Shown: positions 1,424 to 15,980 of the stretch, one piece after another
Layout of the letters: every line of letters starts with the position of its first letter
Position numbering within the stretch: position 1 is the first letter of the stretch
Assembly: GCA_019242395.1 (NCBI GenBank)
Contig: JAFAVP010000252.1
Location: forward strand, 1-33,852
DNA: 33,852 nt
From: Alphaproteobacteria bacterium
Lineage (GTDB): Bacteria > Pseudomonadota > Alphaproteobacteria > Micropepsales > Micropepsaceae
Direction: 5' to 3'
The notes under the pieces: model-generated
What the model was told of the DNA's origin: nothing
The model's database searches: none
The model's input: the letters and a program-made list of their open reading frames with translations, nothing else
Program-made: the position numbers and the translations under genes

Positions 1424-1855
1424 ATGCAATTCCTCCCTACATCCATTGGACACACAGGCTCGCTGAGCTTCCCTGTGCAGGGCTTCGTGTTTGCCGGCAC
1501 GACCGGCTTCCAAAGCCCGGCGGATGACTACGCCGAAGATCGCATCGATCTGGCGGCCGAGCTTGTCACGACGAAGGCGAATACCTTCTGCCGTCGCGTC
1601 GTCGGCACGTCGTGGCAGCCGATGGGCGTCTCTGACGGCGATATCGCCGTGTTCGATTATTCCAAGACCCCAAAAGTAGGCAGCATGGTGCTGGCGCGCG
1701 TGGGCGGCCTCGACATGATGAAAATCGTTCGCCGCATCGACGGCAAGCTGTTCCTGACCGCGCCCGATCAGCAGGTGAAGGCATTGCCGGTCGATGAAGA
1801 GCAGGGCGTTCAGATTCTGGGCGTGCTAACGGCCGTGGTGAAACGGTTCGACTGA
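1424..1855 (+). CDS. umuD: UmuD-type translesion polymerase V accessory protein (S24 protease)
   Basis: UmuD cuts itself with RecA help, and the cleaved form joins UmuC to make error-prone DNA polymerase V. The 143-residue protein has the normal family length. The Ser/Lys pair is visible: Ser63 in GTSWQP and Lys100 in GLDMMKIVRR, 37 residues apart as in E. coli UmuD (Ser60/Lys97). The self-cleavage site should be Thr27-Gly28 in FAGTTGFQSPADDY, at the same distance from the serine as Cys24-Gly25 in E. coli. The residue after the catalytic Ser is Trp, where Met is usual. The stop overlaps the umuC start by one base (TGATG), so the two genes are translationally coupled. No N-terminal DNA-binding domain is present, so it is not LexA. 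Confidence 0.93.
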   Translation: MQFLPTSIGHTGSLSFPVQGFVFAGTTGFQSPADDYAEDRIDLAAELVTTKANTFCRRVVGTSWQPMGVSDGDIAVFDYSKTPKVGSMVLARVGGLDMMKIVRRIDGKLFLTAPDQQVKALPVDEEQGVQILGVLTAVVKRFD

Positions 1856-3141
1856 TGTACGCGCTGGCCGATTGCAACACGTTCTATGCGAGTTGCGAGA
1901 AAGCCTTTCGCCCCGACCTGGCCAGAAAGCCGGTCGTGGTGCTCTCCAACAACGACGGCTGCGTTATCGCCCTGAGCAATGAAGCCAAGGCGCTGGGTCT
2001 CAAAATGGGGTCTCCCTATTTTCAGGTGAAAGAGCTTTGCCAGCGGCAGGGCGTGGTCGCCTTCTCTTCCAACTATGAGCTATACGCCGATATGTCCGCG
2101 CGCGTTATGGAAACCCTGCGCGAGCTGGTGCCTGACGTTGAGGTCTATTCCATCGATGAAGCATTCTTGGACCTCGATAGGATGCCCCATGTCGATCTGC
2201 ACGCCTTCGCCCGTCATCTGCGCAAGACGGTCTCACGTAACACCGGCATTCCGGTTTCCATTGGCGTGGGCACCACCAAAACACTCGCCAAAGCGGCCAA
2301 CCGCTATGCGAAGCGCAAGACAACGGACTTCGCGTGGACCATCGATACCGAGGAAGAGCGCCAGCGCATCTTGACCTGGCTTGAGACCGGCGATGTCTGG
2401 GGCATCGGTCATCGCTTGCAGGCCCGGCTCGCCGCTATGGGCGTTCATACCGCGTGGGACTTCGCCAATCTGGATAGTCGCGTGGTGCGCAAGACGTTCA
2501 GCGTCACCGTGCAACGAGTATTGTGGGAATTACAGGGAACGCGCTGCTACGGCATCGCGCAGGAAAAGCCGAAGAAGGAGATTATCTGCTCGCGGGCTTT
2601 TGGTCGGGTGATCTACTCCAGCGCCGAGCTTGAGCAGGCCGTCGCCAAGTACGTTGCCCGCGCCGCTGAGAAGCTGCGCTCACAACAGGGCTACACCCAG
2701 CGCGTCGTCGTCTATGCGGAAGGCTCCAACCGCTTCAAAGACGATTTGCCGTGGTACTACAGCACGCTCGTTGGCTTGCCGCGTCCAACGGCCAATACTG
2801 GCGAACTGATCACAGCGTGCACCAAGGCGGCGCATTCTCTTTTCGAGAAAAGGCCTCTGCGTCCCGATCCGCGAAATCCATGTTCTGGCTTCCGCAAGGC
2901 AGGAGTGACGCTGACCGACATTACCTGGGCTGGTGAGGCCCAGCGCGAATTGCTGGTGCCGCTTCCCAGCGAACGTAGCGAAAAGCTCATGGCAACGATG
3001 GATCGCATCAACACCCGCTACGGCAGGAATGCGCTGTTCAATGCACGGATGGGAATCGAGCCGCGTTGGCGCATGCGTCGGGAGTTGAAGTCGCCCAATT
3101 ACACGACTCGGCTAAGCGATATCCCGCCAGTGTTTTGCTAG
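1855..3141 (+). CDS. umuC: UmuC, Y-family DNA polymerase V catalytic subunit
   Basis: This is an error-prone polymerase that copies past DNA lesions. The 428-residue protein is full length for UmuC. The catalytic acidic residues are present: Asp6 in ALADCNTFYASCE, and Asp101-Glu102 in YSIDEAFLDL. VSIGVGTTKTLAKAANRYAK and the helix-hairpin-helix stretch around DVWGIGHRL are typical of the family, as is the C-terminal NARMGIEPRWRMRRELKSPNYTT. It is co-transcribed with umuD. umuDC operons are common on plasmids and ICEs (for example rumAB on R391), where they help the host survive DNA damage and raise mutation rates. Confidence 0.96.
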   Translation: MYALADCNTFYASCEKAFRPDLARKPVVVLSNNDGCVIALSNEAKALGLKMGSPYFQVKELCQRQGVVAFSSNYELYADMSARVMETLRELVPDVEVYSIDEAFLDLDRMPHVDLHAFARHLRKTVSRNTGIPVSIGVGTTKTLAKAANRYAKRKTTDFAWTIDTEEERQRILTWLETGDVWGIGHRLQARLAAMGVHTAWDFANLDSRVVRKTFSVTVQRVLWELQGTRCYGIAQEKPKKEIICSRAFGRVIYSSAELEQAVAKYVARAAEKLRSQQGYTQRVVVYAEGSNRFKDDLPWYYSTLVGLPRPTANTGELITACTKAAHSLFEKRPLRPDPRNPCSGFRKAGVTLTDITWAGEAQRELLVPLPSERSEKLMATMDRINTRYGRNALFNARMGIEPRWRMRRELKSPNYTTRLSDIPPVFC

Positions 3142-3217
3142 CGTCTGAAATTGAGCATCGTCCTGCCGCGCCGCGCCTTGGCCTCGGCTTTCCACAAAAT
3201 GCGGTGATTGAAGGGGT

Positions 3218-3265
3218 TATTCGCCGCATATTGTGCGGTGATTATGCTTGCTTTTGCGGCGAATA
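3218..3265. promoter_or_regulatory. inverted-repeat operator candidate upstream of the fic gene
   Basis: A perfect 11-bp inverted repeat, TATTCGCCGCA (3218-3228) and TGCGGCGAATA (3255-3265), lies between umuC and fic. The same neighbourhood repeats TGCGGTGATT-like units (about 3200, 3234 and 3288) and contains TTCACCGCA in opposite orientation near 3275. This clustering suggests binding sites for a regulator, possibly the C-terminal winged-helix part of the Fic protein itself. That link is inference. Confidence 0.45.
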
Positions 3266-3297
3266 GTGCCATATTCACCGCAGAAGGTGCGGCGATT

Positions 3298-4413
3298 ATG
3301 GCGACTTACATTCATGAACTAAAGGGCTGGCCGGAGTTCCACTGGAGCCAGGAACGTCTCGCCGAACGGCTGGCCGCCGTCCGTCACCGACAAGGACGGC
3401 TGATCGGTCGGATGGAAGCACTTGGCTTCCAACTGCGCGCCGAGGCCAATCTTGCGACCCTCACCGAAGAGGTCATCAAGTCCAGTGAGATCGAGGGCGA
3501 GATCTTGGAGAAGGACCAAGTTCGCTCCTCGATCGCCCGAAGGCTCGGCATGGATATTGGCGCGCTTACGCCCGCCGACCGCAACGTCGAAGGCGTCGTC
3601 GAGATGATGCTGGACGCGACCCAGAACTCCGCGAAGCCGCTCACCGACGAGCGGTTATTTGCGTGGCACGCAGCCCTGTTTCCGACAGGGCGCAGCGGTA
3701 TGACCAAGATCGTCGTTGGCGGCTGGCGTGACGACAGTGAAGGCCCCATGCAGGTCGTGTCTGGGGCCATCGGCAAGCAGAAGGTGCATTACCAAGCGCC
3801 CGCCGCCGCGCGCGTTCCGTCGGATATGCGCACCTTCTTGGAGTGGTTCAAGAACGACGAGCCAGCAGACCTCGTATTGAAGGCGGGCGTCGCTCACCTA
3901 TGGTTCGTTACCATCCATCCTTTCGAGGATGGCAATGGCCGCATCGCGCGCGCCATCGCCGACCTGTTGCTCGCCCGCTCGGAAGGAACGGCGCAACGCT
4001 TCTACAGTATGTCCGCGCAAATCCGCGAAGAACGAAAGACCTATTACGATATTCTGGAAGCGACCCAGAAGGGCAATCTCGACATCACCGAATGGCTGGA
4101 TTGGTTCCTACTCTGCCTCGACCGCGCTTTCGACGGCGCGGAAACCACGCTCGCCGCTGTCATGACGAAGGCGCGGTTCTGGGAGACGCACGCCGGCCAG
4201 TCGTTCAGTGATCGTCAGCGCAAGGTCATCAACAGGCTGCTGGATGGATTTGAAGGCAAACTCACCAACGCCAAATACGCGAAGCTCGCAAAGTGCTCAT
4301 CCGACACCGCATTGCGTGACATCGACGACTTGCTGAAAAAAAACGTTCTAACCAAGGACGCGGCTGGTGGGCGTAGTACGAGTTATGCGCTCTCGCTGGA
4401 GAACCAACCATAG
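3298..4413 (+). CDS. Fic family protein with DUF4172-like N-terminus (class II, self-inhibited)
   Basis: Fic proteins usually transfer AMP from ATP to a hydroxyl group of a target protein. The core motif HPFEDGNGR is complete at residues 207-215, with the catalytic His207. An inhibitory motif (S/T)xxxE(G/N) is present as SSEIEG at residues 62-67, on the N-terminal side of the Fic core, which defines class II. The N-terminus (HELKGWPEFHW) resembles DUF4172, and the C-terminal 70 residues look like a winged-helix domain. The start at 3298 was chosen because AGAAGG precedes it and the family-like sequence begins there; an upstream in-frame ATG at 3208 would add a stretch overlapping the repeat region. 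It lies between umuC and the defence operon on the same strand. Target and role (toxin, guard or regulator) are unknown. Confidence 0.9.
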   Translation: MATYIHELKGWPEFHWSQERLAERLAAVRHRQGRLIGRMEALGFQLRAEANLATLTEEVIKSSEIEGEILEKDQVRSSIARRLGMDIGALTPADRNVEGVVEMMLDATQNSAKPLTDERLFAWHAALFPTGRSGMTKIVVGGWRDDSEGPMQVVSGAIGKQKVHYQAPAAARVPSDMRTFLEWFKNDEPADLVLKAGVAHLWFVTIHPFEDGNGRIARAIADLLLARSEGTAQRFYSMSAQIREERKTYYDILEATQKGNLDITEWLDWFLLCLDRAFDGAETTLAAVMTKARFWETHAGQSFSDRQRKVINRLLDGFEGKLTNAKYAKLAKCSSDTALRDIDDLLKKNVLTKDAAGGRSTSYALSLENQP

Positions 4414-4473: not shown

Positions 4474-5688
4474 GTGAGCAAGAAAAAGCAAAAAAAGGGA
4501 GCCAGCATCGTAGCTATTGCTACGCGTCAGGCTAACCTCAAGCGGCGCGTGCGACGCCATCTCAAGTCCCTAGGCTTTAAGCGTTCCGCAGTGGACGGCC
4601 ATCTAATCGTAGAAGGCACTGGTAAAGACGTAATTCGGGCGCTGCATCAAGCACAGCGCAATGAGAAGCTAAGACTGAACAAGGAATTCATCGCCCAACA
4701 GCTTCCGAAATTGGAGAAGCATTTCGCATCAGGTTCGGATATCGACCCCACAAAGATCAAGCCGGAACTCGAACTCATTCACTCCGGCACGTGGAAAAGC
4801 GACTTATTTAGACTAGCTGCCCTTACATGGGCTGTGCCGGTCTCGAACGGTTTTGGTCGTCGGCTGCGCTATCTTGTGTGGGACAGGCACAATGACAAAC
4901 TGATCGGCCTTATCGCCATCGGCGATCCCGTGTTTAACCTGTCGGTGCGAGACAAGCACATTGGCTGGGATGTAAAGGCCCGCACCCAGCGTCTCGTCAA
5001 TATCCTTGATGCCTATGTGCTAGGTGCGGTGCCGCCGTACAATATGTTGCTTGGCGGTAAACTCGTCGCCTCGCTCATCCGCACTAGAGACATCTACAAC
5101 GACTTCACCAAGGCTTACGGCAACCTCAGAGGCATCATTTCCAAGAAGGAAAAGAATGCCCGCCTGTTGGCCGTTACGACATCTTCATCGTTGGGTCGTT
5201 CATCGGTCTACAACCGCCTCAAGCTCGGAGACACCCAATACTTCTCGGACATCGGCTTTACGCGCGGCTGGGGCCACTTTCACATTCCCGATGACCTCTT
5301 CTTCGAGATGCGCAATTATTTGCGCGATCTCAAACACAAATACGCCGACAAGCACCGCTTCGGCCAAGGCCCGAACTGGCGCCTCAGGACGACGCGCGCC
5401 GCACTTACCGCGCTCGGCTTCAAGGATGATCTACTCAAGCACGGCATCCAGCGGGAAGTCTTTTTCTGCGAACTCGCGAAAAACGCACGTCGGATGCTGC
5501 GAACTGGAAAGGGTCGGGCCGACCTGTCCACCTTGTTGAGCGCCGAGGAAGTGGGAGCGCTTGCCGTCAAGAGATGGATGGCGCCTCGCGCGGAACGCAG
5601 GCCGGAATACAAGGCTTGGCTAGCTTCAAACATCGCCACGTTGCTCACCGAAAAGCGCAACATCGGTAAAGTCGCAGAAATGAGGTAG
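4474..5688 (+). CDS. druA: Druantia anti-phage protein DruA (DUF4338)
   Basis: DruA is the first gene of type I Druantia anti-phage systems; its biochemical role was not established in the family knowledge I have. The 404-residue protein carries a clear DUF4338 region at about residues 100-300, with GRRLRYLVWDRHNDKLIGLI, GDPVFNLSVRD, LVNILDAYVLGAVPPYN and LLGGKLVASL. The N-terminus is very basic (MSKKKQKKG), which suits nucleic acid contact. The GTG start at 4474 is preceded by a GGGCGGGG stretch. The next gene starts 30 bases after the stop, and the helicase gene completes the operon. Identification of the domain is firm; the name DruA rests on the co-occurring DUF1998 helicase. Confidence 0.88.
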   Translation: MSKKKQKKGASIVAIATRQANLKRRVRRHLKSLGFKRSAVDGHLIVEGTGKDVIRALHQAQRNEKLRLNKEFIAQQLPKLEKHFASGSDIDPTKIKPELELIHSGTWKSDLFRLAALTWAVPVSNGFGRRLRYLVWDRHNDKLIGLIAIGDPVFNLSVRDKHIGWDVKARTQRLVNILDAYVLGAVPPYNMLLGGKLVASLIRTRDIYNDFTKAYGNLRGIISKKEKNARLLAVTTSSSLGRSSVYNRLKLGDTQYFSDIGFTRGWGHFHIPDDLFFEMRNYLRDLKHKYADKHRFGQGPNWRLRTTRAALTALGFKDDLLKHGIQREVFFCELAKNARRMLRTGKGRADLSTLLSAEEVGALAVKRWMAPRAERRPEYKAWLASNIATLLTEKRNIGKVAEMR

Positions 5689-5718
5689 GCAGTGGTTCAG
5701 AGCGTAGAGCGATAGGCC

Positions 5719-8562
5719 ATGCCTCTAACGCTCGAAGCATGGCAAAGCCAGATGGAGCAGCATTTCGCTGCTCTCGCTGCTTCACGCGCGACGACGGAAC
5801 TGCCGATATTTGCGCTGGAGCATCCGCTCGCGCCGGAACAGTTTGATGAGATTGCTGCTCAACTAAGGGCGCGCGTCACCCGCAATCTACCGCTGCTTGA
5901 GCATTGGCTACTTTGGGTCATCTATGCAACTGAGGAAGGCTACAGCTACGAAGGCTTAGAGTTCTGGGACTCATTCGAGGCGCACACGCCCAAATGGCGC
6001 GAGCACGAGAGCCGCGCCCAGTTCAAAGTCTGGTTTCGCAAATTTCAGAAAGCCTATAACGGCGTTGAACCGAAGGGGCCGTGGGCACGCCAGTTCAACA
6101 ATATTGTCTGGCCCATCCGCCACGCCATCCTGCCCAAATATCTCCAATATCAATTTGCCGAGGCGCTACATGGGCTTCGCTTTAAACTTGCCCGCTTGAG
6201 TTCCTTAGATGCCGCTGAGGTGGGGCACCTCTTGGCGACGAACTCATGGGATGCATCGAAGCGTCTCCGCGAATTTCTCCAGCAAGAGGAACTGTCAGGT
6301 CGCATTGTCCTGGCACTCCTCAATCACGATGTCGCCGACCAGGAGCTGATTCATAGCCCGACACTAAAACGCATCATCACCGACTTGGAAAAGGTGCATA
6401 AGGCCAAGGTATGGCTCAAGGAGACACGCCACGCAACGGACGTCTTTCGCGGCGCGGAGCGCAAATATAACACGCCCGGCACCGCTAATCCCGCGATGCC
6501 GATCATGCCCGCGCTGGACACCACCCCATTGCAGATGCGCATGCATGTCATGCTGCGGAGGATGGACAAGGAAAGCTGGTCGCCCATTCTCGACCTTCCT
6601 GACTTCTCTCCTGTCGCGGCTTTCAACGCCGACCTCGCGAACTTTTTGCGGAAAACGCGTTGCCAAATCAGCGGTGAAGGTATTTGGCTGCCCGCCGGTT
6701 GGCTGCTCTCCGGCACACAACGCCGCGCGCTCAAAACGTGGCCGGGTACAGGCAAACCCGTTATTCGTTTTGAACAACTCAACGGCATCATAGAAAACAT
6801 ACTCAACGCGGACTTCCGGTTGTCATCTGTTCCTTACTGGCTGTTTCGCATCGGTCAAGATGGATTGGCCTATCAGGTCGTCGGTATGACCATTCGACCG
6901 GGGCAGCGATATGTTCTGCTCACCTCGGAACCGCTGACAATTGAAAGCACCATGCTCAAGCCCTGCAAGGTGCATTGCGAGGGCGTGCATGCAACAGAGA
7001 TCGACGTGCCGAACGCGCTCTGCGACGATGACATCGCGTTCCTCCAAAAACTCAATCTCAATGCGAACCGTACACTTCGGATTTGGCCGGCAGGCTTTGT
7101 CGCGCGCGGTTGGGACGGCGACGGCTATAGCGAATGGTTGACCACCGAAGCCCCGCGCTTTGGCATTGTTCCCGACCATTCGGTCACGGCGTATCACGTA
7201 AGCCTGGACGATTGCGCTATCGACACAATCAACGCCCAGAATCCCGGCAAGCCAACGTTCCTGCAGTTACCGCCCCTTGCGCCGGGGCGGCATTTATTGC
7301 GCGTCCGCGCAAGACGAACAGGGCAGGTCGCGGACAAGGACATGGAAGGTTACCTGAGTCTTAGCGTGCGCGACCCGATATCTTGGCGCGCGGGCACGAC
7401 CGCTTATAGCGGCCTCTTTGTCACTACAGACCCCGCTGACCCTTCGCTGGAACAATTCGCCGATGGCGATTTGTCCGTATCGGTTTCTGGCCCAGAGGGA
7501 GTTCAGGTCTCAGTGCGGCTAGCTCTGGCCGGTCGCAATGGTATCTCGTTGCCTGATCAGGAAATTGCCAAGCTGGACCTTCCAATCACAGCTTCGAGTT
7601 GGGCGCAGAAGGTTGGCCAGCAGCTCTCTCATGGCAATCTCGCATGGAAGCTGATCGAAGGGACTTCGGGTATCCTCAAGATCGGCAATGAGGACCTCGG
7701 CTGGTTCAGCCTCAAGCTGGAACGCGAAGCTCGTCCGCTCCGCTGGGTCTGTCGCAATGTGGACCACGCGACAAAGATTCGACTGACAGATGACACCGGG
7801 TCGGAAGCCGACGCACGCGTGCTCTTCCGTACCTTTCGCCAACCGCTTACCGACAACGTCCTTGGGCATGAGGTCATGTTAGCCGGGCAAACCGTCGCCA
7901 ACCCCGGAGGCATGTTTGTAGCATCCCATGCAGACACGCGCGACGCGCTGGTGGTCAGCACACCAGAGGTGCATGGCTTTGGCGAGCTTCTGGTCAGCCC
8001 GGATGCAAATGCGCTCGTCAACGAGGATGTTCGCTCGCTTCTCTCTGCCGCGAACCTTTGGCAGCAAGCACGGCTTGCAGGCCCATTGGCGAGCCTGCGC
8101 CGGGACCATGTAGTGAATGCGCTCTTGCAAGGCTTTTTTGGAAGACTTTGCGGCGATCGCTGGGCGCGGTTGGAACGCCAATACATGGATCAGCCGAGTG
8201 CCCACAGCACCATAGATGAGTTGGGTCAGATGTTTGACCGCAAATCCGGCGGCTTCAATGTCATCTTGCGCCGCGACTTCGCAAAAATGAACGAAGGGAC
8301 AGGGCCCGGCAGCAACTGGTTCTTCGACATCGCCAGCCGCTACGGCATTTGCTCGGACAGCGAGTTGTGCGAAACGGCGCTGAAGGTGGCCAGTGAGCCA
8401 ACTTTCCTGCTCGCGCAAACGGACGAGGAGATTCAGGACACCGTCGCGGCCCTTGAGAGCCACCCCGGCCTGCTGCGTGGCGCAAGGCTTGTTGCGATCA
8501 CGTCCGTGTTAGCTGAGCCGCACACTGCAAAACGTTTACTTCCGAGCTGGCGATGGCAGTAG
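5719..8562 (+). CDS. large Druantia-associated protein of unknown function (in the DruB/DruC position)
   Basis: This 947-residue protein is encoded between druA and the druE-like helicase. I do not recognise a catalytic domain in it. The first 250 residues look mainly helical and rich in Trp and aromatic residues (LLEHWLLWVIYATEEGYSYE, then FNNIVWPIRHAILPKYLQYQ). The middle, about residues 350-720, looks beta-rich with Ig-like strand patterns. The last 200 residues are again helical. No signal peptide or membrane segment is seen. Canonical type I Druantia has three proteins (DruB, DruC, DruD) here, whereas this operon has two, so this long protein may be a fusion or replacement of DruB and DruC. 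Its stop overlaps the next start by 10 bases, so the genes are translationally coupled. Confidence 0.72.
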   Translation: MPLTLEAWQSQMEQHFAALAASRATTELPIFALEHPLAPEQFDEIAAQLRARVTRNLPLLEHWLLWVIYATEEGYSYEGLEFWDSFEAHTPKWREHESRAQFKVWFRKFQKAYNGVEPKGPWARQFNNIVWPIRHAILPKYLQYQFAEALHGLRFKLARLSSLDAAEVGHLLATNSWDASKRLREFLQQEELSGRIVLALLNHDVADQELIHSPTLKRIITDLEKVHKAKVWLKETRHATDVFRGAERKYNTPGTANPAMPIMPALDTTPLQMRMHVMLRRMDKESWSPILDLPDFSPVAAFNADLANFLRKTRCQISGEGIWLPAGWLLSGTQRRALKTWPGTGKPVIRFEQLNGIIENILNADFRLSSVPYWLFRIGQDGLAYQVVGMTIRPGQRYVLLTSEPLTIESTMLKPCKVHCEGVHATEIDVPNALCDDDIAFLQKLNLNANRTLRIWPAGFVARGWDGDGYSEWLTTEAPRFGIVPDHSVTAYHVSLDDCAIDTINAQNPGKPTFLQLPPLAPGRHLLRVRARRTGQVADKDMEGYLSLSVRDPISWRAGTTAYSGLFVTTDPADPSLEQFADGDLSVSVSGPEGVQVSVRLALAGRNGISLPDQEIAKLDLPITASSWAQKVGQQLSHGNLAWKLIEGTSGILKIGNEDLGWFSLKLEREARPLRWVCRNVDHATKIRLTDDTGSEADARVLFRTFRQPLTDNVLGHEVMLAGQTVANPGGMFVASHADTRDALVVSTPEVHGFGELLVSPDANALVNEDVRSLLSAANLWQQARLAGPLASLRRDHVVNALLQGFFGRLCGDRWARLERQYMDQPSAHSTIDELGQMFDRKSGGFNVILRRDFAKMNEGTGPGSNWFFDIASRYGICSDSELCETALKVASEPTFLLAQTDEEIQDTVAALESHPGLLRGARLVAITSVLAEPHTAKRLLPSWRWQ

Positions 8563-9647
8563 TCGAGATCACATCGCACGAACTACTCCAGCAAGTGCGC
8601 CGGGCATCGGGGTTGCCGATGATAATGGACAATAATCTCGACGATGCGCTTCTCGCGGCGTTGATACGCCGGGCAGCGGGCTTCCTTTGCCCATGCTCCC
8701 GCGCGACGGTCGCGGCAGCTGTGGTCGAAAGCTTAGAGTTTCTCGCTGACACCCCTGAAACATTGCGCGAGCGGGTTGACGCAGCTACGGAAACGCTGAT
8801 TGCGTTCGGCGATCTGTTGGAACTCAATCAAGTTACCATCGATGACCCACAGGCCAAGGGCACCTGGATCTTTGCGGCGCCGCCCGGTTTCGTGAAATTG
8901 CGTAGCGGCACCGTGTTGCTACTTGGCATTTCGCGGGACGAAAGCACACCGTTACCTTCGGAACTAAGCGATCAGGTGATCTACCATCGCTTTGCTCGCC
9001 TCTTGCCTGCCACCGGAAAGGATCAAGCAACGGCTCTTGCTGCATTGGGCCTAACCGCTCACACCGAAGAAGCATGGACGCGAGGGCCGCAGCCAGCAAC
9101 ACCGCAAACACTTGTCGAAAAGTTGGCGAGACGGTTGCTCTCCTCACCTTCCAGCGGAGAACTGCCCGAACTTACCTTCATCCGACCGGATACCGACACG
9201 ACCTATTATCGCGGGCGGTGGGGAGCACCTCGCAACGAGACGGGCGTGTTCATCGGGCGGCGCCCGCAGGACTTCGGCCGAGAAGGCATGTGGGGCGTTG
9301 TTCAACTCGCAAACGGTTTGCCGACGAAATTCCTCGATCTGCCCACCCGGTCGCGGTGGCGCGGCTGCGACGAGGCCTGGTATGTCCAACTGGCATTGGA
9401 TGCCACCCGTCGTACTCCCCAGAAATACCGTGTTCGACCCACTCAGGATGGATCATACTTTGATTTCTTTTCGCCGATCCCAAGCTGGGCGGAGCGTCGG
9501 CTAGCGATTGTGGGCGAGCTAGCCCCCCGCGCGAAGTGTTTGTTCTCATACCGCGTACCTCAGCAAGAGTTGAAGGCTCAGGAAGAGTATCTGCAAAAGA
9601 ACTTGTGGCTTGTTCGACACGATGACAAAAGCGAGACGGAGGGGTGA
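8553..9647 (+). CDS. Druantia-associated protein of unknown function (in the DruD position)
   Basis: This 364-residue protein lies directly before the DruE-like helicase gene. It overlaps the previous gene by 10 bases, and its stop TGA overlaps the helicase ATG by one base (TGATG), so it must be made together with both. I recognise no domain. The N-terminal 95 residues look helical. The middle contains GTWIFAAPPGFVKLRSGTVLLLGIS, and the C-terminal half is rich in Arg, Trp and aromatic residues (YYRGRWGAPRNETGVFIGRR). No membrane segment or signal peptide is seen. Position and size suggest the counterpart of DruD, but I could not align it, so the name is withheld. Confidence 0.68.
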   Translation: MAVVEITSHELLQQVRRASGLPMIMDNNLDDALLAALIRRAAGFLCPCSRATVAAAVVESLEFLADTPETLRERVDAATETLIAFGDLLELNQVTIDDPQAKGTWIFAAPPGFVKLRSGTVLLLGISRDESTPLPSELSDQVIYHRFARLLPATGKDQATALAALGLTAHTEEAWTRGPQPATPQTLVEKLARRLLSSPSSGELPELTFIRPDTDTTYYRGRWGAPRNETGVFIGRRPQDFGREGMWGVVQLANGLPTKFLDLPTRSRWRGCDEAWYVQLALDATRRTPQKYRVRPTQDGSYFDFFSPIPSWAERRLAIVGELAPRAKCLFSYRVPQQELKAQEEYLQKNLWLVRHDDKSETEG

Positions 9648-12600
9648 TGGCGCAGACTATTCAGGAAACGATCAAGCAACTGCACCACTCGTTGCGCGAT
9701 TACATTGAGGCGACGTACCACATCAGCGATCCGGCGCTCATTGAACAGCGCAAGCGGCTCCTCGATAAGCCTGGCATCATTCACCAAGTCCCTTATCTCG
9801 AATCCACGCCCCGCTATAAGTCGGGAGCGATTTTTGCCAGCATGAATGGACTCTCGCCCGCCGCTTTGGAAGTCTACCAGATGCTGTCCAAACCGGACGC
9901 GACGCTGCCGCAAATTCTTTACGACCCGCCCTACAAACATCAATCCGAGGCTATCCAAGGCAGCCTGATCGACGGGCGTAACCTACTCATTATGACCGGC
10001 ACCGGTTCGGGCAAAACTGAGTCATTCTTGCTGCCGATCATCGGCAAGCTGGCCAACGAGGCCGAGTCTTCGCCTAAATCGTTCAGTGACGATTTTGGCA
10101 TCCGCGCGCTGGTTCTCTATCCGATGAACGCGCTCGTGAATGACCAGCTGGGCCGCATGCGGTCGCTCTTTGGCGATCCGCGCGTGGTCAACAAGTTCCG
10201 AACCTGGGCCGGTCGTCCGCCCCGCTTCGCGCGTTACACCAGCCGCACGCCCTATGCCGGAGTGCGAACGAGCAAGAAGGACAGCAATAAGCTAATGCCG
10301 TTCGACAGTTTCTATGTCGAAATCCAAAGGCTGAGCAAAGAGTCGCCATCTGACGAACAACGACAGGCTTCGGCGATTCTCGAGCAACTCAAAAAGCGCG
10401 GTAAGTGGCCCGCGAAGCCGGACTTGCCGGGTTGGTTCGGGAAAAAGGGTTCCCCTTGGCAAGAAAGGAAATCAGGCGAGTGGCTCCGGGCGGTGACGCT
10501 GCCCGAAGACACCGAACTTCTTACTCGGCATGAGGCGCAGGTCACGGCGCCCGATCTGCTTGTGACCAACTATTCGATGCTCGAATACATGCTCATGCGG
10601 CCGATTGAGCGTACTATATTCGATCAGACCAAGGAGTGGTTGAGGAAAAATCCCAAGGAAAAATTTCTAGTAGTTTTGGACGAAGCGCATCTCTATCGCG
10701 GTGCGGCAGGTGCAGAGGTCGGATTGCTGTTACGCCGCCTGCGAGACCGTCTCGGTATTCCACCTGAGCGTTTCCAAGTGATTTGTGCCACAGCAAGCTT
10801 CACCAACAAGGATTATGCCGCCGATTTCGGTGCTCAGCTTGCAGGTGTTCCAGCGTCGACCTTCACCGCGATAACGGGTGATCTCGACCTACGCTCGCCG
10901 GACGGCGCGGGAACGGCAGACGACGCGAATATTCTGGCAGCAGTGGACATTGCGGCCTTCAATGAAGGCGCAGACACTGCGACGCGAGCGGAAGCGATTA
11001 AGCCTTTTCTCGCACATCAGGGCGTCGCACCGACGGGCGACTACGAACGCGACCTGTACGACGCGCTCAAGTCGTTTGCGCCTTTGGGCCGTCTCGTCAA
11101 TAAGACCATGAAACAGGCTATGCCCGTCGCGGAATTGAGCAAAGAGCTGTTCCCCGGTGCATCGCACGCTGAAGAGGCTGTTAGCGCGTTGATGACGCTG
11201 GGCAGCACGGCCAAGAAGGAACCGAATGGCCCAAGCCTTTTGCCTTGCCGCATCCATAACTTCTTCCGTGGGCTGCCAGGTCTTTGGGCCTGCCTCGACC
11301 CCGACTGCTCCGAGGTGCCGAAAGCCGAGCGGAGCGGGATCTGCGGAAAGCTCTATGGCCAGCCGCGTGAGCAATGCGATTGTGGATCGCGCGTTCTTGA
11401 ATTCTACTCATGCCGTTATTGCGGCACGGCCTACGCTCGCGCTTACTCGGATGACGTAGATAGCCCAACATCCCTTTGGTCGGAAGCTGGGCGTCGGTTG
11501 CGTATGGATGGCGGCGAGACCAACGCCATGCTGCCGCTCGATTTGCTGCTTGAGCAGCCCAGCCTTCCCAATCTCGCAGAGGCGGCGGATTACGACCTAG
11601 AAACGGGCCGCCTTAACCCCAATCAGCACAGCAAGCGCATGCGGACCGTCCATCTGCGGCGTGACCGGATCACGCCGGCCGTGGATGAGGACGGCGATCA
11701 GAGCAGGGATTTTGAATCCCGTGGCCAATTCGCGCCTTGCGCTTGCTGCGGCAAGACAGCGAAATTCGGTTATTCCTATGTGCAGGATCACCAGACCAAA
11801 GGCGATCAGCCCTTCGAGGCCCTTGTCTCGACACAGATTCAGATTCAGCCGCCCAGCCCAGTGAAAGCGACGAAGTTCGCACCGCTCAGGGGCCGCAAGG
11901 TCTTGGTATTCTCGGACTCGCGCCAAGTGGCTGCTCGTCTCGCGCCTAACCTTCAAATGTATTCGGTGCGCGACTCGCTACGCCCCCTTATTGTGTGGGG
12001 CTACCGCGAACTCAGCAAAAGCGTCGCCCTGAAAAATCTATTGAGCTTGGAGGATGTGTACCTTGCGGTTCTCCTTGCGTCTAAAAAGCTCGGCGTCCGC
12101 CTTCGCCCAGAATTGAAACAGCATGAAAGTTTCGACGGCGAGGAAACGGTTGAAGCCGCAGTCGCAAGCGGCGCGGCAAGTTCTGAGAACGGGTTACTGA
12201 CGCTAGGCATGCAGTTCCGTTCCGAGAAGCCGCCGGAGGCGTTGCTCGACGACATTATCAACACCATCCAAAATCCATTCTTGGGTTTGGAACCGCTAGC
12301 GCTTGCATCGTTGTGTGAGACCACGACGATTACCGAGGCACTGACAAAGCTTCCCGACATTCCTGGCATTGCCGATACTCCCCAAACCAAGGTCGAATTG
12401 ACCCGTGCCTGGCTGCGCTGTTGGCGCAACTTCGGCTTCTGGTTGAACGCCATGCCGTCAACTTGGTTCATGCGACCCCGCGCGCAAGGCACAAGCGTTC
12501 GCGGCAAGAAAGGCAAAGGCAAGTTTGACGCAATGGACGTGATCCTGACGGATCGGGGCACGCGCAAGATTTTCAATGACTATTGGACACCCGAGTTGGT

Positions 12601-15184
12601 TCGGCTGTTCACACAGGACACTTCTGGCTTTCTGAAACTTCAAGGAAGCAAACTCGCGCTGGATTTCGACGGGCCTTGGGTTCGCTGTTCGAGCTGTAAA
12701 TCGGTACATCGTCCCGTTTCAACGATTGCGCACTGTTTGGACTGTGGGCGCCCGACAGTGGCCCCTCTCGATCCGACTAATGATCCGGCCTTCCTGGCCC
12801 GTAAGGGTTATTACAGAGCGCCCGTCATGGCATCGTTGGCAGACCCCCCGCGTCAGCCGATGGCTCTAATCGCGGCGGAGCACACGGCGCAGCTAAATTC
12901 GCCGCAGAACGAGGACGTATTCTCAAAAGCGGAAGAGAACGAGCTACTGTTCCAAGACGTATCAGTAACGTGGGGTCGCAACGCAAATCGGGCGTCGGCC
13001 ATCGACGTGCTTTCAAGCACCACCACGATGGAGGTCGGCATCGACATCGGTGCGCTGTCCGGAGTGGCTTTGCGTAACATGCCTCCCGGTCGGGCAAACT
13101 ATCAGCAGCGTGCCGGTCGCGCGGGCCGTCGGGGTAACGCAGTGGCTACGGTTGTCGCCTTTGGCAGCGCTGATAGCCATGACGAGCATTACTTTGTGGA
13201 ACCCGATGCCATGATCCGGGGCGATGTGGTTGACCCGAGGCTCACGCTCAACAATCGGGACATCACACAGCGGCACATCCGAGCCTTCCTGCTGCAAAAC
13301 TATCATCAGGACAGGTTGCCCGATGTTGACCCCGCTCAAAATCATGACTTGTTCTCGGTGTTAGGTGATGTTGCTGATTTCCGTAACGGGACGGCGCTGC
13401 TGAATCGCGCAGATTTTGCCAAGTGGCTCAAGAAGAACGAGACCGATCTGCGCAAGCGTATTGATTCTTGGATACCGGAAGAGCTTTCCAAAGAAGATCG
13501 CGCTGCATTGCTCGGCGACTTCATCAGCGATTGCCTTAAAGCGGTTGACCGGGCCATCAAGTTTGATTCCAACGCGGCGGTTGTCTCGAAGGATGAAGAG
13601 GTCGAGGAAGGCGAAGAGGCGGCAGAGGAGGGCGAAGAGAAGCCCATACGCAATACCGAGACAGGAAAGCTGCTCGACCGGTTGCTGTATAGCGGTGTCC
13701 TTCCCCGCTACGCATTCCCGACCGATGTGGCCACCTTCCATGTTTTTGACCGCGCACGCTCCTCTAAATTCCGCGCCGTTATGCGTTTTGCGCCATCGCA
13801 AGGTCTGCCTATTGCGCTGTCGCAATATGCGCCGGGCAAGCAGATTTGGATTTCCGGCAAGTGCTATTCCTCCGGCGCGGTCTATTCTCCCATGCGCGAC
13901 GACCGTGATGCCGCCTGGGAGAACGGGAAACGCCTTTATTGGGAATGCGGTGTATGCGAGTTCGCACAGACCACCGACTATAAGGCAGAGGATAAAGGCG
14001 CCACCGTCGATTGCCCCGCCTGCGGAACGAAGGAATCGTTTGGACCTTCGCGATCATGGCTGCGGCCGCCCGGCTTTGCGCATCCGGTCGATGTGGAGGA
14101 AGTCACATCGCCCGACGACGTGCCGGAGACGAGCTATGCGACCCGCGCAAAGCTAACGATGAAAACGCCGGATCACGAATACGATTGGACACCTGTTAAC
14201 GCGCGAGTCGGCGCCCTAAAAGTTCGCGATCACTTGCTGGTGTCGAACAGTGGCCCCAAGAGCGACGGGTATTCTTACTGCGTCAAATGTGGCCGTATCG
14301 AAGCGGCCACCGAGGAACAGCCGAAGCTGTTTTCCGCGCACCCGAAGCCATATCCTGACGAGAAAGAAGAGACGTGCAGCGGCGATCGCACGGCGCAGCA
14401 TATCGTTCTGGGCACGGATTTCATTACGGATGTAGTGTTGTTCTCGCTCAAGGTCGCAGCGCCACTTCAACTATTACCCGGCCAATATCCGACCGACGTT
14501 GCGTTGCGAACCGTAAGCGAGGCGCTGGCTAAGGCCGCATGCGACCTGCTGGAAATCGAGCCTGGCGAGCTCATGGCGGAGTATCGCCCCGCCCTGACAA
14601 GAGACGGTAGGCTCGGCAAGGAAGCCGAAATTTTCCTATACGACACCCTACCGGGTGGGGCGGGATTTGCCAGCCAGCTTGTGGATCGGGGTCAGAAACT
14701 GTTCGAGCGTGCGCTTCATTTGATGAAGAGCTGTCCCGAACAGTGCGATGCCTCCTGTTATCGCTGCCTGCGCAGCTTCAAGAATAAATTTGAGCACGGG
14801 CTACTCGACCGCCACGTTGGAGCTGAGTTGCTCGAATATTTGCTGACTGGTCATCTACCCGGCTTCAATGCCGAACGGCTGGAAAGCTCAACGAAGCTAC
14901 TGTTCGCTGATTTGCAGCGGCAAGGTCGTACCGACGTAATCTACAAGGAGAATGAAACTATCAAGGTGAACGGCAAGGATGTCGTTGCCCCGATCCTTGC
15001 CGAGCGCGGAGGAAAGAAATTTATCGTGGCGTTAGCTGCGCCACTGACTTCGGCGCATCCGGCTGATCCGAGGATCGCAGCCATCAAAGACGCAAGTGTG
15101 GCAATCATCGTGGAGAATGAACTGCTCGCACGAGGCAACCTGCCCACAACGACGCGGAATGTCGAATTGAAATTAACTCTTTGA
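9647..15184 (+). CDS. druE: DruE-like giant DEAH-box helicase with C-terminal DUF1998
   Basis: This is the large helicase-like protein that defines Druantia systems. The 1845-residue sequence has Walker A GTGSGKT at 118-124, Walker B DEAH at 345-348, a motif III-like CATASF near 382 and motif VI QRAGRAGRRG at 1154-1163, so the two RecA-like halves are far apart and hold large inserts. Several Cys pairs suggest zinc ribbons (around 550-590, near 690, near 1015 and near 1430-1455). The C-terminal DUF1998 region has LPGGAGF and a Cys cluster C1696-x3-C1700-x3-C1704-x2-C1707. An acidic Glu-rich linker lies near 1315-1330. ATG 9647 follows GGAGGGG; a GTG at 9644 is also possible. DISARM also has a DUF1998 protein, but separate DrmA-type genes are absent. 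Confidence 0.92.
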   Translation: MAQTIQETIKQLHHSLRDYIEATYHISDPALIEQRKRLLDKPGIIHQVPYLESTPRYKSGAIFASMNGLSPAALEVYQMLSKPDATLPQILYDPPYKHQSEAIQGSLIDGRNLLIMTGTGSGKTESFLLPIIGKLANEAESSPKSFSDDFGIRALVLYPMNALVNDQLGRMRSLFGDPRVVNKFRTWAGRPPRFARYTSRTPYAGVRTSKKDSNKLMPFDSFYVEIQRLSKESPSDEQRQASAILEQLKKRGKWPAKPDLPGWFGKKGSPWQERKSGEWLRAVTLPEDTELLTRHEAQVTAPDLLVTNYSMLEYMLMRPIERTIFDQTKEWLRKNPKEKFLVVLDEAHLYRGAAGAEVGLLLRRLRDRLGIPPERFQVICATASFTNKDYAADFGAQLAGVPASTFTAITGDLDLRSPDGAGTADDANILAAVDIAAFNEGADTATRAEAIKPFLAHQGVAPTGDYERDLYDALKSFAPLGRLVNKTMKQAMPVAELSKELFPGASHAEEAVSALMTLGSTAKKEPNGPSLLPCRIHNFFRGLPGLWACLDPDCSEVPKAERSGICGKLYGQPREQCDCGSRVLEFYSCRYCGTAYARAYSDDVDSPTSLWSEAGRRLRMDGGETNAMLPLDLLLEQPSLPNLAEAADYDLETGRLNPNQHSKRMRTVHLRRDRITPAVDEDGDQSRDFESRGQFAPCACCGKTAKFGYSYVQDHQTKGDQPFEALVSTQIQIQPPSPVKATKFAPLRGRKVLVFSDSRQVAARLAPNLQMYSVRDSLRPLIVWGYRELSKSVALKNLLSLEDVYLAVLLASKKLGVRLRPELKQHESFDGEETVEAAVASGAASSENGLLTLGMQFRSEKPPEALLDDIINTIQNPFLGLEPLALASLCETTTITEALTKLPDIPGIADTPQTKVELTRAWLRCWRNFGFWLNAMPSTWFMRPRAQGTSVRGKKGKGKFDAMDVILTDRGTRKIFNDYWTPELVRLFTQDTSGFLKLQGSKLALDFDGPWVRCSSCKSVHRPVSTIAHCLDCGRPTVAPLDPTNDPAFLARKGYYRAPVMASLADPPRQPMALIAAEHTAQLNSPQNEDVFSKAEENELLFQDVSVTWGRNANRASAIDVLSSTTTMEVGIDIGALSGVALRNMPPGRANYQQRAGRAGRRGNAVATVVAFGSADSHDEHYFVEPDAMIRGDVVDPRLTLNNRDITQRHIRAFLLQNYHQDRLPDVDPAQNHDLFSVLGDVADFRNGTALLNRADFAKWLKKNETDLRKRIDSWIPEELSKEDRAALLGDFISDCLKAVDRAIKFDSNAAVVSKDEEVEEGEEAAEEGEEKPIRNTETGKLLDRLLYSGVLPRYAFPTDVATFHVFDRARSSKFRAVMRFAPSQGLPIALSQYAPGKQIWISGKCYSSGAVYSPMRDDRDAAWENGKRLYWECGVCEFAQTTDYKAEDKGATVDCPACGTKESFGPSRSWLRPPGFAHPVDVEEVTSPDDVPETSYATRAKLTMKTPDHEYDWTPVNARVGALKVRDHLLVSNSGPKSDGYSYCVKCGRIEAATEEQPKLFSAHPKPYPDEKEETCSGDRTAQHIVLGTDFITDVVLFSLKVAAPLQLLPGQYPTDVALRTVSEALAKAACDLLEIEPGELMAEYRPALTRDGRLGKEAEIFLYDTLPGGAGFASQLVDRGQKLFERALHLMKSCPEQCDASCYRCLRSFKNKFEHGLLDRHVGAELLEYLLTGHLPGFNAERLESSTKLLFADLQRQGRTDVIYKENETIKVNGKDVVAPILAERGGKKFIVALAAPLTSAHPADPRIAAIKDASVAIIVENELLARGNLPTTTRNVELKLTL

Positions 15185-15920: not shown

Positions 15921-15980
15921 CCAGACTCAAAATCTGTTGCCTTCACGGGCGTGCTGGTTCGAGTCCGGCCAGGGGCACCA
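15921..15980 (+). repeat. attR candidate: 3' fragment of tRNA-Leu(CAA)
   Basis: The fragment contains the 3' half of a tRNA-Leu: anticodon stem-loop CAGA-CTCAAAA-TCTG (anticodon CAA), variable arm, T-arm GCTGG-TTCGAGT-CCGGC, acceptor 3' strand CAGGGGC, discriminator A and encoded CCA (15978-15980). A matching 5' acceptor strand (GCCCCTG) and a D-arm are missing; the upstream sequence is AT-rich and unrelated. A 3' tRNA fragment running from the anticodon stem to CCA is the usual remnant left when a tyrosine integrase inserts an element into a tRNA gene. It marks the right border of the element. Confidence 0.8.

What the first reader, a model, noticed from the sequence alone, without database searches (positions are those of the whole stretch)
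4474..15184. Druantia type I-like defence operon with only two middle genes
The operon begins with a DUF4338 gene (druA) and ends with a 1845-residue DUF1998 helicase (druE-like). Known type I systems have three small or medium genes between these (druB, druC, druD); here there are a 947- and a 364-residue protein, coupled by overlapping starts and stops (10 bases, then 1 base). This could be a subtype in which DruB and DruC are fused or one is replaced. It could also be a known variant I cannot recall.
Basis: partly seen in the sequence, partly recalled or inferred. Interest (0 to 1): 0.78.

Follow-up and report, generated by a model that had tools for sequence, protein, structure and literature searches.

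The report
Four-gene Druantia variant, unfamiliar middle gene
This is a bacterial anti-phage gene cluster of the Druantia type I kind in which two of the usual five genes are replaced by one large unmodelled protein built like the phage sensor of another Druantia type; the four-gene layout recurs in unrelated bacteria, so it looks like a real subtype rather than a broken copy.

Summary
Four co-directional genes at 4474-15184: druA (404 aa), a 947-aa protein (M947), a 364-aa protein and druE (1846 aa). PADLOC profiles identify DruA1, DruD1 (the 364-aa protein) and DruE1, each matched nearly end to end; M947 has no match in PADLOC, Pfam or NCBIfam. It is not detectably DruB, DruC or a fusion of the two. 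M947-DruD-DruE recurs in 17 of 17 loci with enough contig, with DruA directly upstream in 16 of 19, across Pseudomonadota, Acidobacteriota and Armatimonadota; two Actinomycetota loci lack DruA. The genes' distance matrices agree, and these DruE proteins form a supported clade apart from DruE of a five-gene system. The M947 model is a helical N-terminus, tandem Ig/FnIII-like beta-sandwiches and a helical C-terminus, the layout of DruH, the proposed phage sensor of Druantia III; sequence homology to DruH is not shown. Full-length M947 relatives also sit with an SNF2 helicase beside DruE-like or DISARM DrmA/DrmB helicases. Best reading: a four-gene Druantia I subtype in which M947 is probably the sensor/scaffold, DruD carries a winged helix and DruE is the helicase effector. 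No activity was tested.

The parts
4474..5688 (+). druA (404 aa, DUF4338/PF14236)
   Evidence: PADLOC DruA1 661 bits; Pfam DruA 279 bits
5719..8562 (+). M947: 947-aa protein in place of DruB and DruC
   Evidence: No family hit in PADLOC, Pfam or NCBIfam; 18 other loci carry homologues in Druantia context; model pLDDT 76
5719..6459 (+). M947 N-terminal helical domain (aa 1-247), the best conserved part; shared with SNF2-partner proteins
6535..7968 (+). M947 central beta-sandwich region (aa 273-750); clearest Ig/FnIII-like domain at aa 451-553 (nt 7069-7377)
   Evidence: Z 9.7, rmsd 2.0 over 86 residues to CbhA FnIII module 3pdd; Foldseek hits to Ig/FnIII and complement-type chains
7981..8514 (+). 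M947 C-terminal helical domain (aa 755-932), among the least conserved parts
8553..9647 (+). druD (364 aa, PADLOC DruD1)
   Evidence: PDLC00010 389 bits over residues 1-359; model pLDDT 86
8628..8927 (+). winged-helix domain of DruD (aa 26-125)
   Evidence: Z up to 8.9 to winged-helix domains of many unrelated proteins
9644..15184 (+). druE (1846 aa, YprA-family SF2 helicase)
   Evidence: PADLOC DruE1 2051 bits; DEAD, Helicase_C, MZB; Walker A GTGSGKTE and DEAH intact
15923..15980 (+). 3' part of a tRNA-Leu(CAA) gene without its 5' part: probable attachment-site remnant at the island edge
   Evidence: 86-95% identical to sites in seven other genomes of the genus (77% in an eighth); the three checked by ARAGORN are intact tRNA-Leu(CAA) genes

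Best explanation
A four-gene subtype of Druantia type I (DruA-M947-DruD-DruE) carried on a probable tRNA-Leu island. Shown: gene content, order, recurrence, parallel divergence of the four genes, absence of detectable DruB/DruC, intact helicase motifs in DruE. Inferred from models: M947 is a modular protein-recognition scaffold of helical N-domain, tandem Ig/FnIII-like domains and helical C-domain; DruD has an N-terminal winged helix. Inferred by analogy with Druantia III: M947 senses a phage-made protein, or another sign of infection, through its beta-sandwich region and licenses DruE, an SF2 helicase, to act on infection-associated DNA; DruD would dock the complex on DNA or couple M947 to DruE. 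The role of DruA is unknown. A cutting activity is not obvious in the four proteins; some relatives add a NERD-like nuclease/SF1 ATPase gene after DruE, but this window does not. Confidence is split: about 0.85 that it is a real four-gene subtype of Druantia type I, about 0.4-0.5 that M947 is the sensor.
For: DruA1/DruD1/DruE1 profiles; 17/17 M947-DruD-DruE and 16/19 DruA upstream, loci from several phyla; distance matrices of the four genes correlate, r 0.81-0.97, 0 of 2000 permutations reach them; DruE clade 100/99 apart from the five-gene DruE; M947 and DruD diverge faster than DruE (mean identity to window 40 and 41 versus 63%), the pattern reported for DruH versus DruE; the M947 layout equals that of DruH, which has helical ends and three Ig-like domains and is proposed to sense phage tail/baseplate proteins (PMC13192584); a mycobacterial type III system is activated by a minor tail protein (PMC13316683).
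Against: No activity data. M947-DruH sequence homology is weak (hhalign P 0.1 full length, 0.014 for the N-domain; above all 60 shuffles in each case, but only just for full length). Ig/FnIII folds are common and the Z values are only a little above the background level given by the tool. DruD is as divergent as M947, so divergence does not single out a sensor, and within M947 the C-domain varies more than the Ig-like part. M947 model pTM is 0.56, so domain packing is unsure.
Confidence: 0.5

Rival explanations
1. M947 is a DruB-DruC fusion, or a very diverged DruB or DruC, so this is an ordinary five-function type I system in four genes.
For: Same position between druA and druD. Genes for defence subunits often fuse (general knowledge).
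Against: No DruB/DruC profile hit to M947 (E up to 0.1 for the window, up to 1 for three relatives); hhalign against canonical DruB and DruC is beaten by 8 and 10 of 40 shuffles; M947 is 236 aa shorter than DruB plus DruC. Only one canonical DruB/DruC pair was at hand, so this test has limited depth.
Confidence: 0.12
2. M947 is a scaffold of a helicase complex, not a sensor: it tethers DruE (or SNF2 in its relatives), and DNA sensing is done by DruE and DruD themselves.
For: Full-length M947 relatives pair with SNF2 helicases near DrmA/DrmB or DruE, so a helicase partner is the constant; YprA-family helicases are reported to recognise DNA architecture (PMC13192584).
Against: Tandem Ig-like domains and fast divergence fit recognition of a variable partner; nothing decides it here.
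Confidence: 0.3
3. A decayed or non-functional remnant of a five-gene Druantia type I system.
For: DruB and DruC absent; some relatives are decayed (L003 has an IS3 element in druE and a shortened M947 frame, L013 lacks M947 and DruA).
Against: All four frames open and helicase motifs intact; the same four genes recur from Armatimonadota to Gammaproteobacteria with close spacing or overlaps.
Confidence: 0.05

Closest known systems
Druantia type I (DruA-DruB-DruC-DruD-DruE)
   Same: DruA1 and DruE1 profiles, a DruD1-labelled gene, druA first and druD-druE last
   Different: No DruB, no DruC; one 947-aa protein of another family between DruA and DruD; the DruD matches PADLOC profiles PDLC00010/12, not PDLC00009 that fits the canonical P. 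putida DruD
Druantia type III (DruH-DruE)
   Same: A large protein (947 versus 1119 aa) with helical ends and Ig-like domains, encoded with DruE; faster divergence than DruE
   Different: M947 has no DruH profile hit; hhalign inconclusive; DruE is DruE1, not DruE3; DruA and DruD present
Unnamed SNF2-partner proteins beside DISARM-like DrmA/DrmB + UvrD + NERD genes (Rhizobium L004, G691 L071) or beside DruE-like helicases (P. versutus L016, Leisingera L020)
   Same: Homologous to M947 over 744 columns (hhalign 99.9%, E 2e-33)
   Different: Paired with an SNF2 helicase rather than DruD-DruE; no PADLOC or Pfam name
ARMADA (YprA-family helicase systems, PMC12458937)
   Same: YprA-family helicase core; ARMADA II adds a GajB-like SF1 helicase gene, as some relatives here add a NERD-like/SF1 gene
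   Different: ARMADA has BrxHII-like and PglX-like genes, not seen here

Membership tests
Druantia type I | DruA (DUF4338) first gene | tested here: met
Druantia type I | DruB | tested here: not met
   No hit in window proteins; no P. putida DruB homologue in any of the four-gene loci searched
Druantia type I | DruC | tested here: not met
   As for DruB
Druantia type I | DruD | tested here: met
   PADLOC DruD1 389 bits. Homology to the canonical P. putida DruD itself is inconclusive (hhalign P 0.06, 2 of 40 shuffles reach it)
Druantia type I | DruE of the DruE1 profile | tested here: met
   2051 bits, next best profile 667
Druantia type I | Protection against phage | not testable with these tools
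   Needs cloning and plaque assays
Druantia type III | DruH next to DruE | tested here: inconclusive
   No DruH profile hit; hhalign P 0.1 full length, 0.014 N-domain; similar layout of domains only
Druantia type II / IV | DruM, DruF, DruG or DruL in the operon | tested here: not met
   hmmscan of the four operon proteins and five flanking proteins finds none
DISARM | DrmA and DrmB as separate genes | tested here: not met
   Helicase and MZB/DUF1998 are in one 1846-aa protein
[quoted passage not shown]
   No such gene among the operon and neighbouring proteins scanned

The most novel reading that the evidence does not exclude
M947 founds an undescribed family of Ig-like infection sensors that plug into different helicase-centred defence systems: DruE in a four-gene Druantia subtype, and SNF2 with DrmA/DrmB or DruE-like helicases elsewhere. 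It would be the functional counterpart, perhaps a distant relative, of DruH.
Probability: 0.3. Interest if true: 0.75.

Novelty: new variant of a known kind. Interest (0 to 1): 0.55.

Why it matters
How Druantia type I senses phage is unknown; no paper found here gives its mechanism. A natural variant that has one protein with the DruH-like layout in place of DruB and DruC suggests that type-specific partners form an exchangeable sensing layer on a common DruE core, which is directly testable by gene deletion and swaps. The libraries searched here do not model the 947-aa family, so such loci would be read as incomplete type I systems.

Tried and rejected
DruB/DruC fusion: profile comparisons negative. 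A canonical DruC family search in 398 Pseudomonadota genomes gave only weak, partial coiled-coil matches. Window druA DNA has no match in E. coli genomes, nor has the P. putida druABC DNA. Viral contigs: no M947, DruB or DruH relatives. No solved structure matches M947, DruD or DruA by sequence. Foldseek and VIA lists for M947 are filled by Ig/FnIII domains; the helical ends were not folded alone and stay untested. A first shuffle control for M947-DruH ran with wrong alignment settings and was discarded; the rerun is. Some DruE branches in the tree are long (P. putida, haloarchaea, Meiothermus), so deep branching order is not claimed. Rfam found nothing at the tRNA remnant, as expected for a partial tRNA.

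Full report
Observation. The window holds four co-directional genes: druA 4474-5688 (404 aa), M947 5719-8562 (947 aa), a 364-aa gene 8553-9647 and druE 9644-15184 (1846 aa, or 1845 from ATG 9647).

Identity of the parts. PADLOC profiles give DruA1 (661 bits), DruD1 for the 364-aa protein (389 bits over residues 1-359) and DruE1 (2051 bits over residues 1-1843); M947 has no hit up to E 0.1. Pfam gives DruA, DEAD, Helicase_C and the MZB zinc domain; Pfam and NCBIfam have nothing for M947. DruE keeps GTGSGKTE and DEAH. So the only unmodelled member is M947, and the only missing type I genes are druB and druC.

Recurrence. DruD and then DruE follow M947 in 17 of 17 loci where the contig is long enough. 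DruA is directly upstream in 16 of 19; the exceptions are the decayed S. medicae copy and the two Actinomycetota. M947 was not found in the 59 other genomes of the genus that were searched, and it is rare: 3 of 398 Pseudomonadota genomes, one of these being the SNF2-partner type. Patchiness fits horizontal transfer.

The four genes diverge in parallel: pairwise distances correlate at r 0.81-0.97 with 0 of 2000 permutations reaching the value. This control does not remove shared host phylogeny, but the loci span phyla. In the DruE tree the M947-linked proteins, with that of G174, form a clade (100/99) apart from the P. putida DruE of a five-gene system and from DruE-like proteins of P. versutus and Leisingera; several outside branches are long.

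Is M947 DruB, DruC or a fusion? The canonical five-gene operon on P. putida pKF715A (L017) served as reference: DruB 558 aa, DruC 625 aa, DruD 260 aa, all confirmed by PADLOC. hhalign of the 15-row M947 profile with DruB and DruC gives P 0.20 and 0.24, beaten by 8 and 10 of 40 shuffles. None of the four-gene loci searched has a DruB or DruC homologue nearby. The test rests on a single canonical DruB and DruC sequence. PADLOC's label DruD1 covers families that hardly see each other: the window's DruD fits PDLC00010/12, the P. putida DruD fits PDLC00009, and direct homology between them is inconclusive. This suggests that the library makers had sampled loci of this kind while leaving M947 without a profile; that is inference.

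Structure. M947 (15-row alignment, pLDDT 76, pTM 0.56): helices to about residue 247, a low-confidence stretch at 228-272, beta-rich 273-750, helices 755-932. The clearest domain, 451-553, aligns to FnIII/Ig domains (3pdd, Z 9.7, rmsd 2.0 over 86 residues). The N-domain is the best conserved (49% mean pairwise identity), the C-domain one of the least (28%). No enzymatic domain was recognised, but the helical ends were not searched separately. DruD (pLDDT 86): winged helix at about 26-125, Z up to 8.9, followed by an alpha/beta part without a clear match.

Mechanism. For Druantia III, a 2026 preprint proposes DruH as phage sensor, with helical ends and three Ig-like domains, faster divergence than DruE and weak binding of a baseplate protein, and DruE as helicase-nuclease effector; it suggests that subtype-specific partners determine how the DruE core is activated (PMC13192584). 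A second study finds a mycobacterial type III system activated by a minor tail protein (PMC13316683). M947 has the same overall layout and diverges faster than DruE (40 versus 63% mean identity to the window). I therefore propose M947 as sensor/scaffold, DruD as DNA-binding coupler and DruE as effector; all functional steps are inference. DruE of types I and II is reported to carry a predicted inactivated Vsr-like C-terminal domain (PMC12458937), so the source of any DNA cutting is open. Sequence homology between M947 and DruH is not established: P 0.1 full length and 0.014 for the N-domain, above 60 of 60 shuffled controls in each case, but by 0.3 score units only for full length.

A wider family. 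Proteins of 959-1012 aa that pair with an SNF2 helicase are homologous to M947 over 744 columns (E 2e-33). They lie beside DrmA, DrmB, UvrD-like and NERD genes in G691 (L071) and the same arrangement in Rhizobium (L004), and beside DruE-like, DUF4338, NERD-UvrD and MzaB-like genes in P. versutus and Leisingera. This family therefore attaches to more than one helicase system. In seven of the M947 loci a further gene follows DruE, with a NERD-like N-terminus (judged by eye) and an SF1-type ATPase part (weak Pfam/PADLOC hits); the window lacks it.

Setting. About 740 bases after druE lies a 58-base 3' part of tRNA-Leu(CAA) without its 5' part; relatives carry the intact gene. This is probably the right edge of an integrated island that carries the operon, with a fic gene and umuDC-like genes to its left; no integrase was recognised among the proteins scanned, and the left edge is not in this contig.

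Verdict. Real and recurrent; a new variant of Druantia type I, with no sign of decay and no sign of a DruB-DruC fusion. The sensor role of M947 is the most likely reading but unproven. Whether other authors list this variant in supplementary tables could not be checked.

Noticed in passing
window 15923-15980: 58-base 3' part of tRNA-Leu(CAA) lacking its 5' part, directly right of the operon: probable attachment-site remnant of an integrated island.
   Followed up: partly
L011 16752-18728, L024 19539-21539, L025 12308-14284, L027 19572-21551, L022 19568-20617, L003 17217-18740, L070 15981-17945: Seven M947 loci carry an extra gene after druE: NERD-like N-terminus plus SF1-type ATPase (about 655 aa). 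The window lacks it.
   Followed up: partly
L004 7995-13888; L071 8903-15047; L016 17793-23545; L020 21008-27015: Full-length M947 relatives paired with SNF2 helicases beside DISARM-like DrmA/DrmB/UvrD/NERD genes or beside DruE-like/DUF4338/MzaB-like genes; no library name.
   Followed up: partly
L013 9027-10508 (-): In genome G174 the druD part is preceded by a hydrophobic, membrane-like segment in place of its winged helix; no M947 or druA upstream: decayed or rearranged locus.
   Followed up: partly
L034 5015-8152 and 9926-12835: Mycobacterium locus has two M947 paralogues on the same strand before druD-druE, and druE is split into two frames.
   Followed up: no
window 1424-4413: UmuD-like peptidase and UmuC-like polymerase genes and a Fic-domain protein (PADLOC SoFic 153 bits) just left of the operon.
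   Followed up: no
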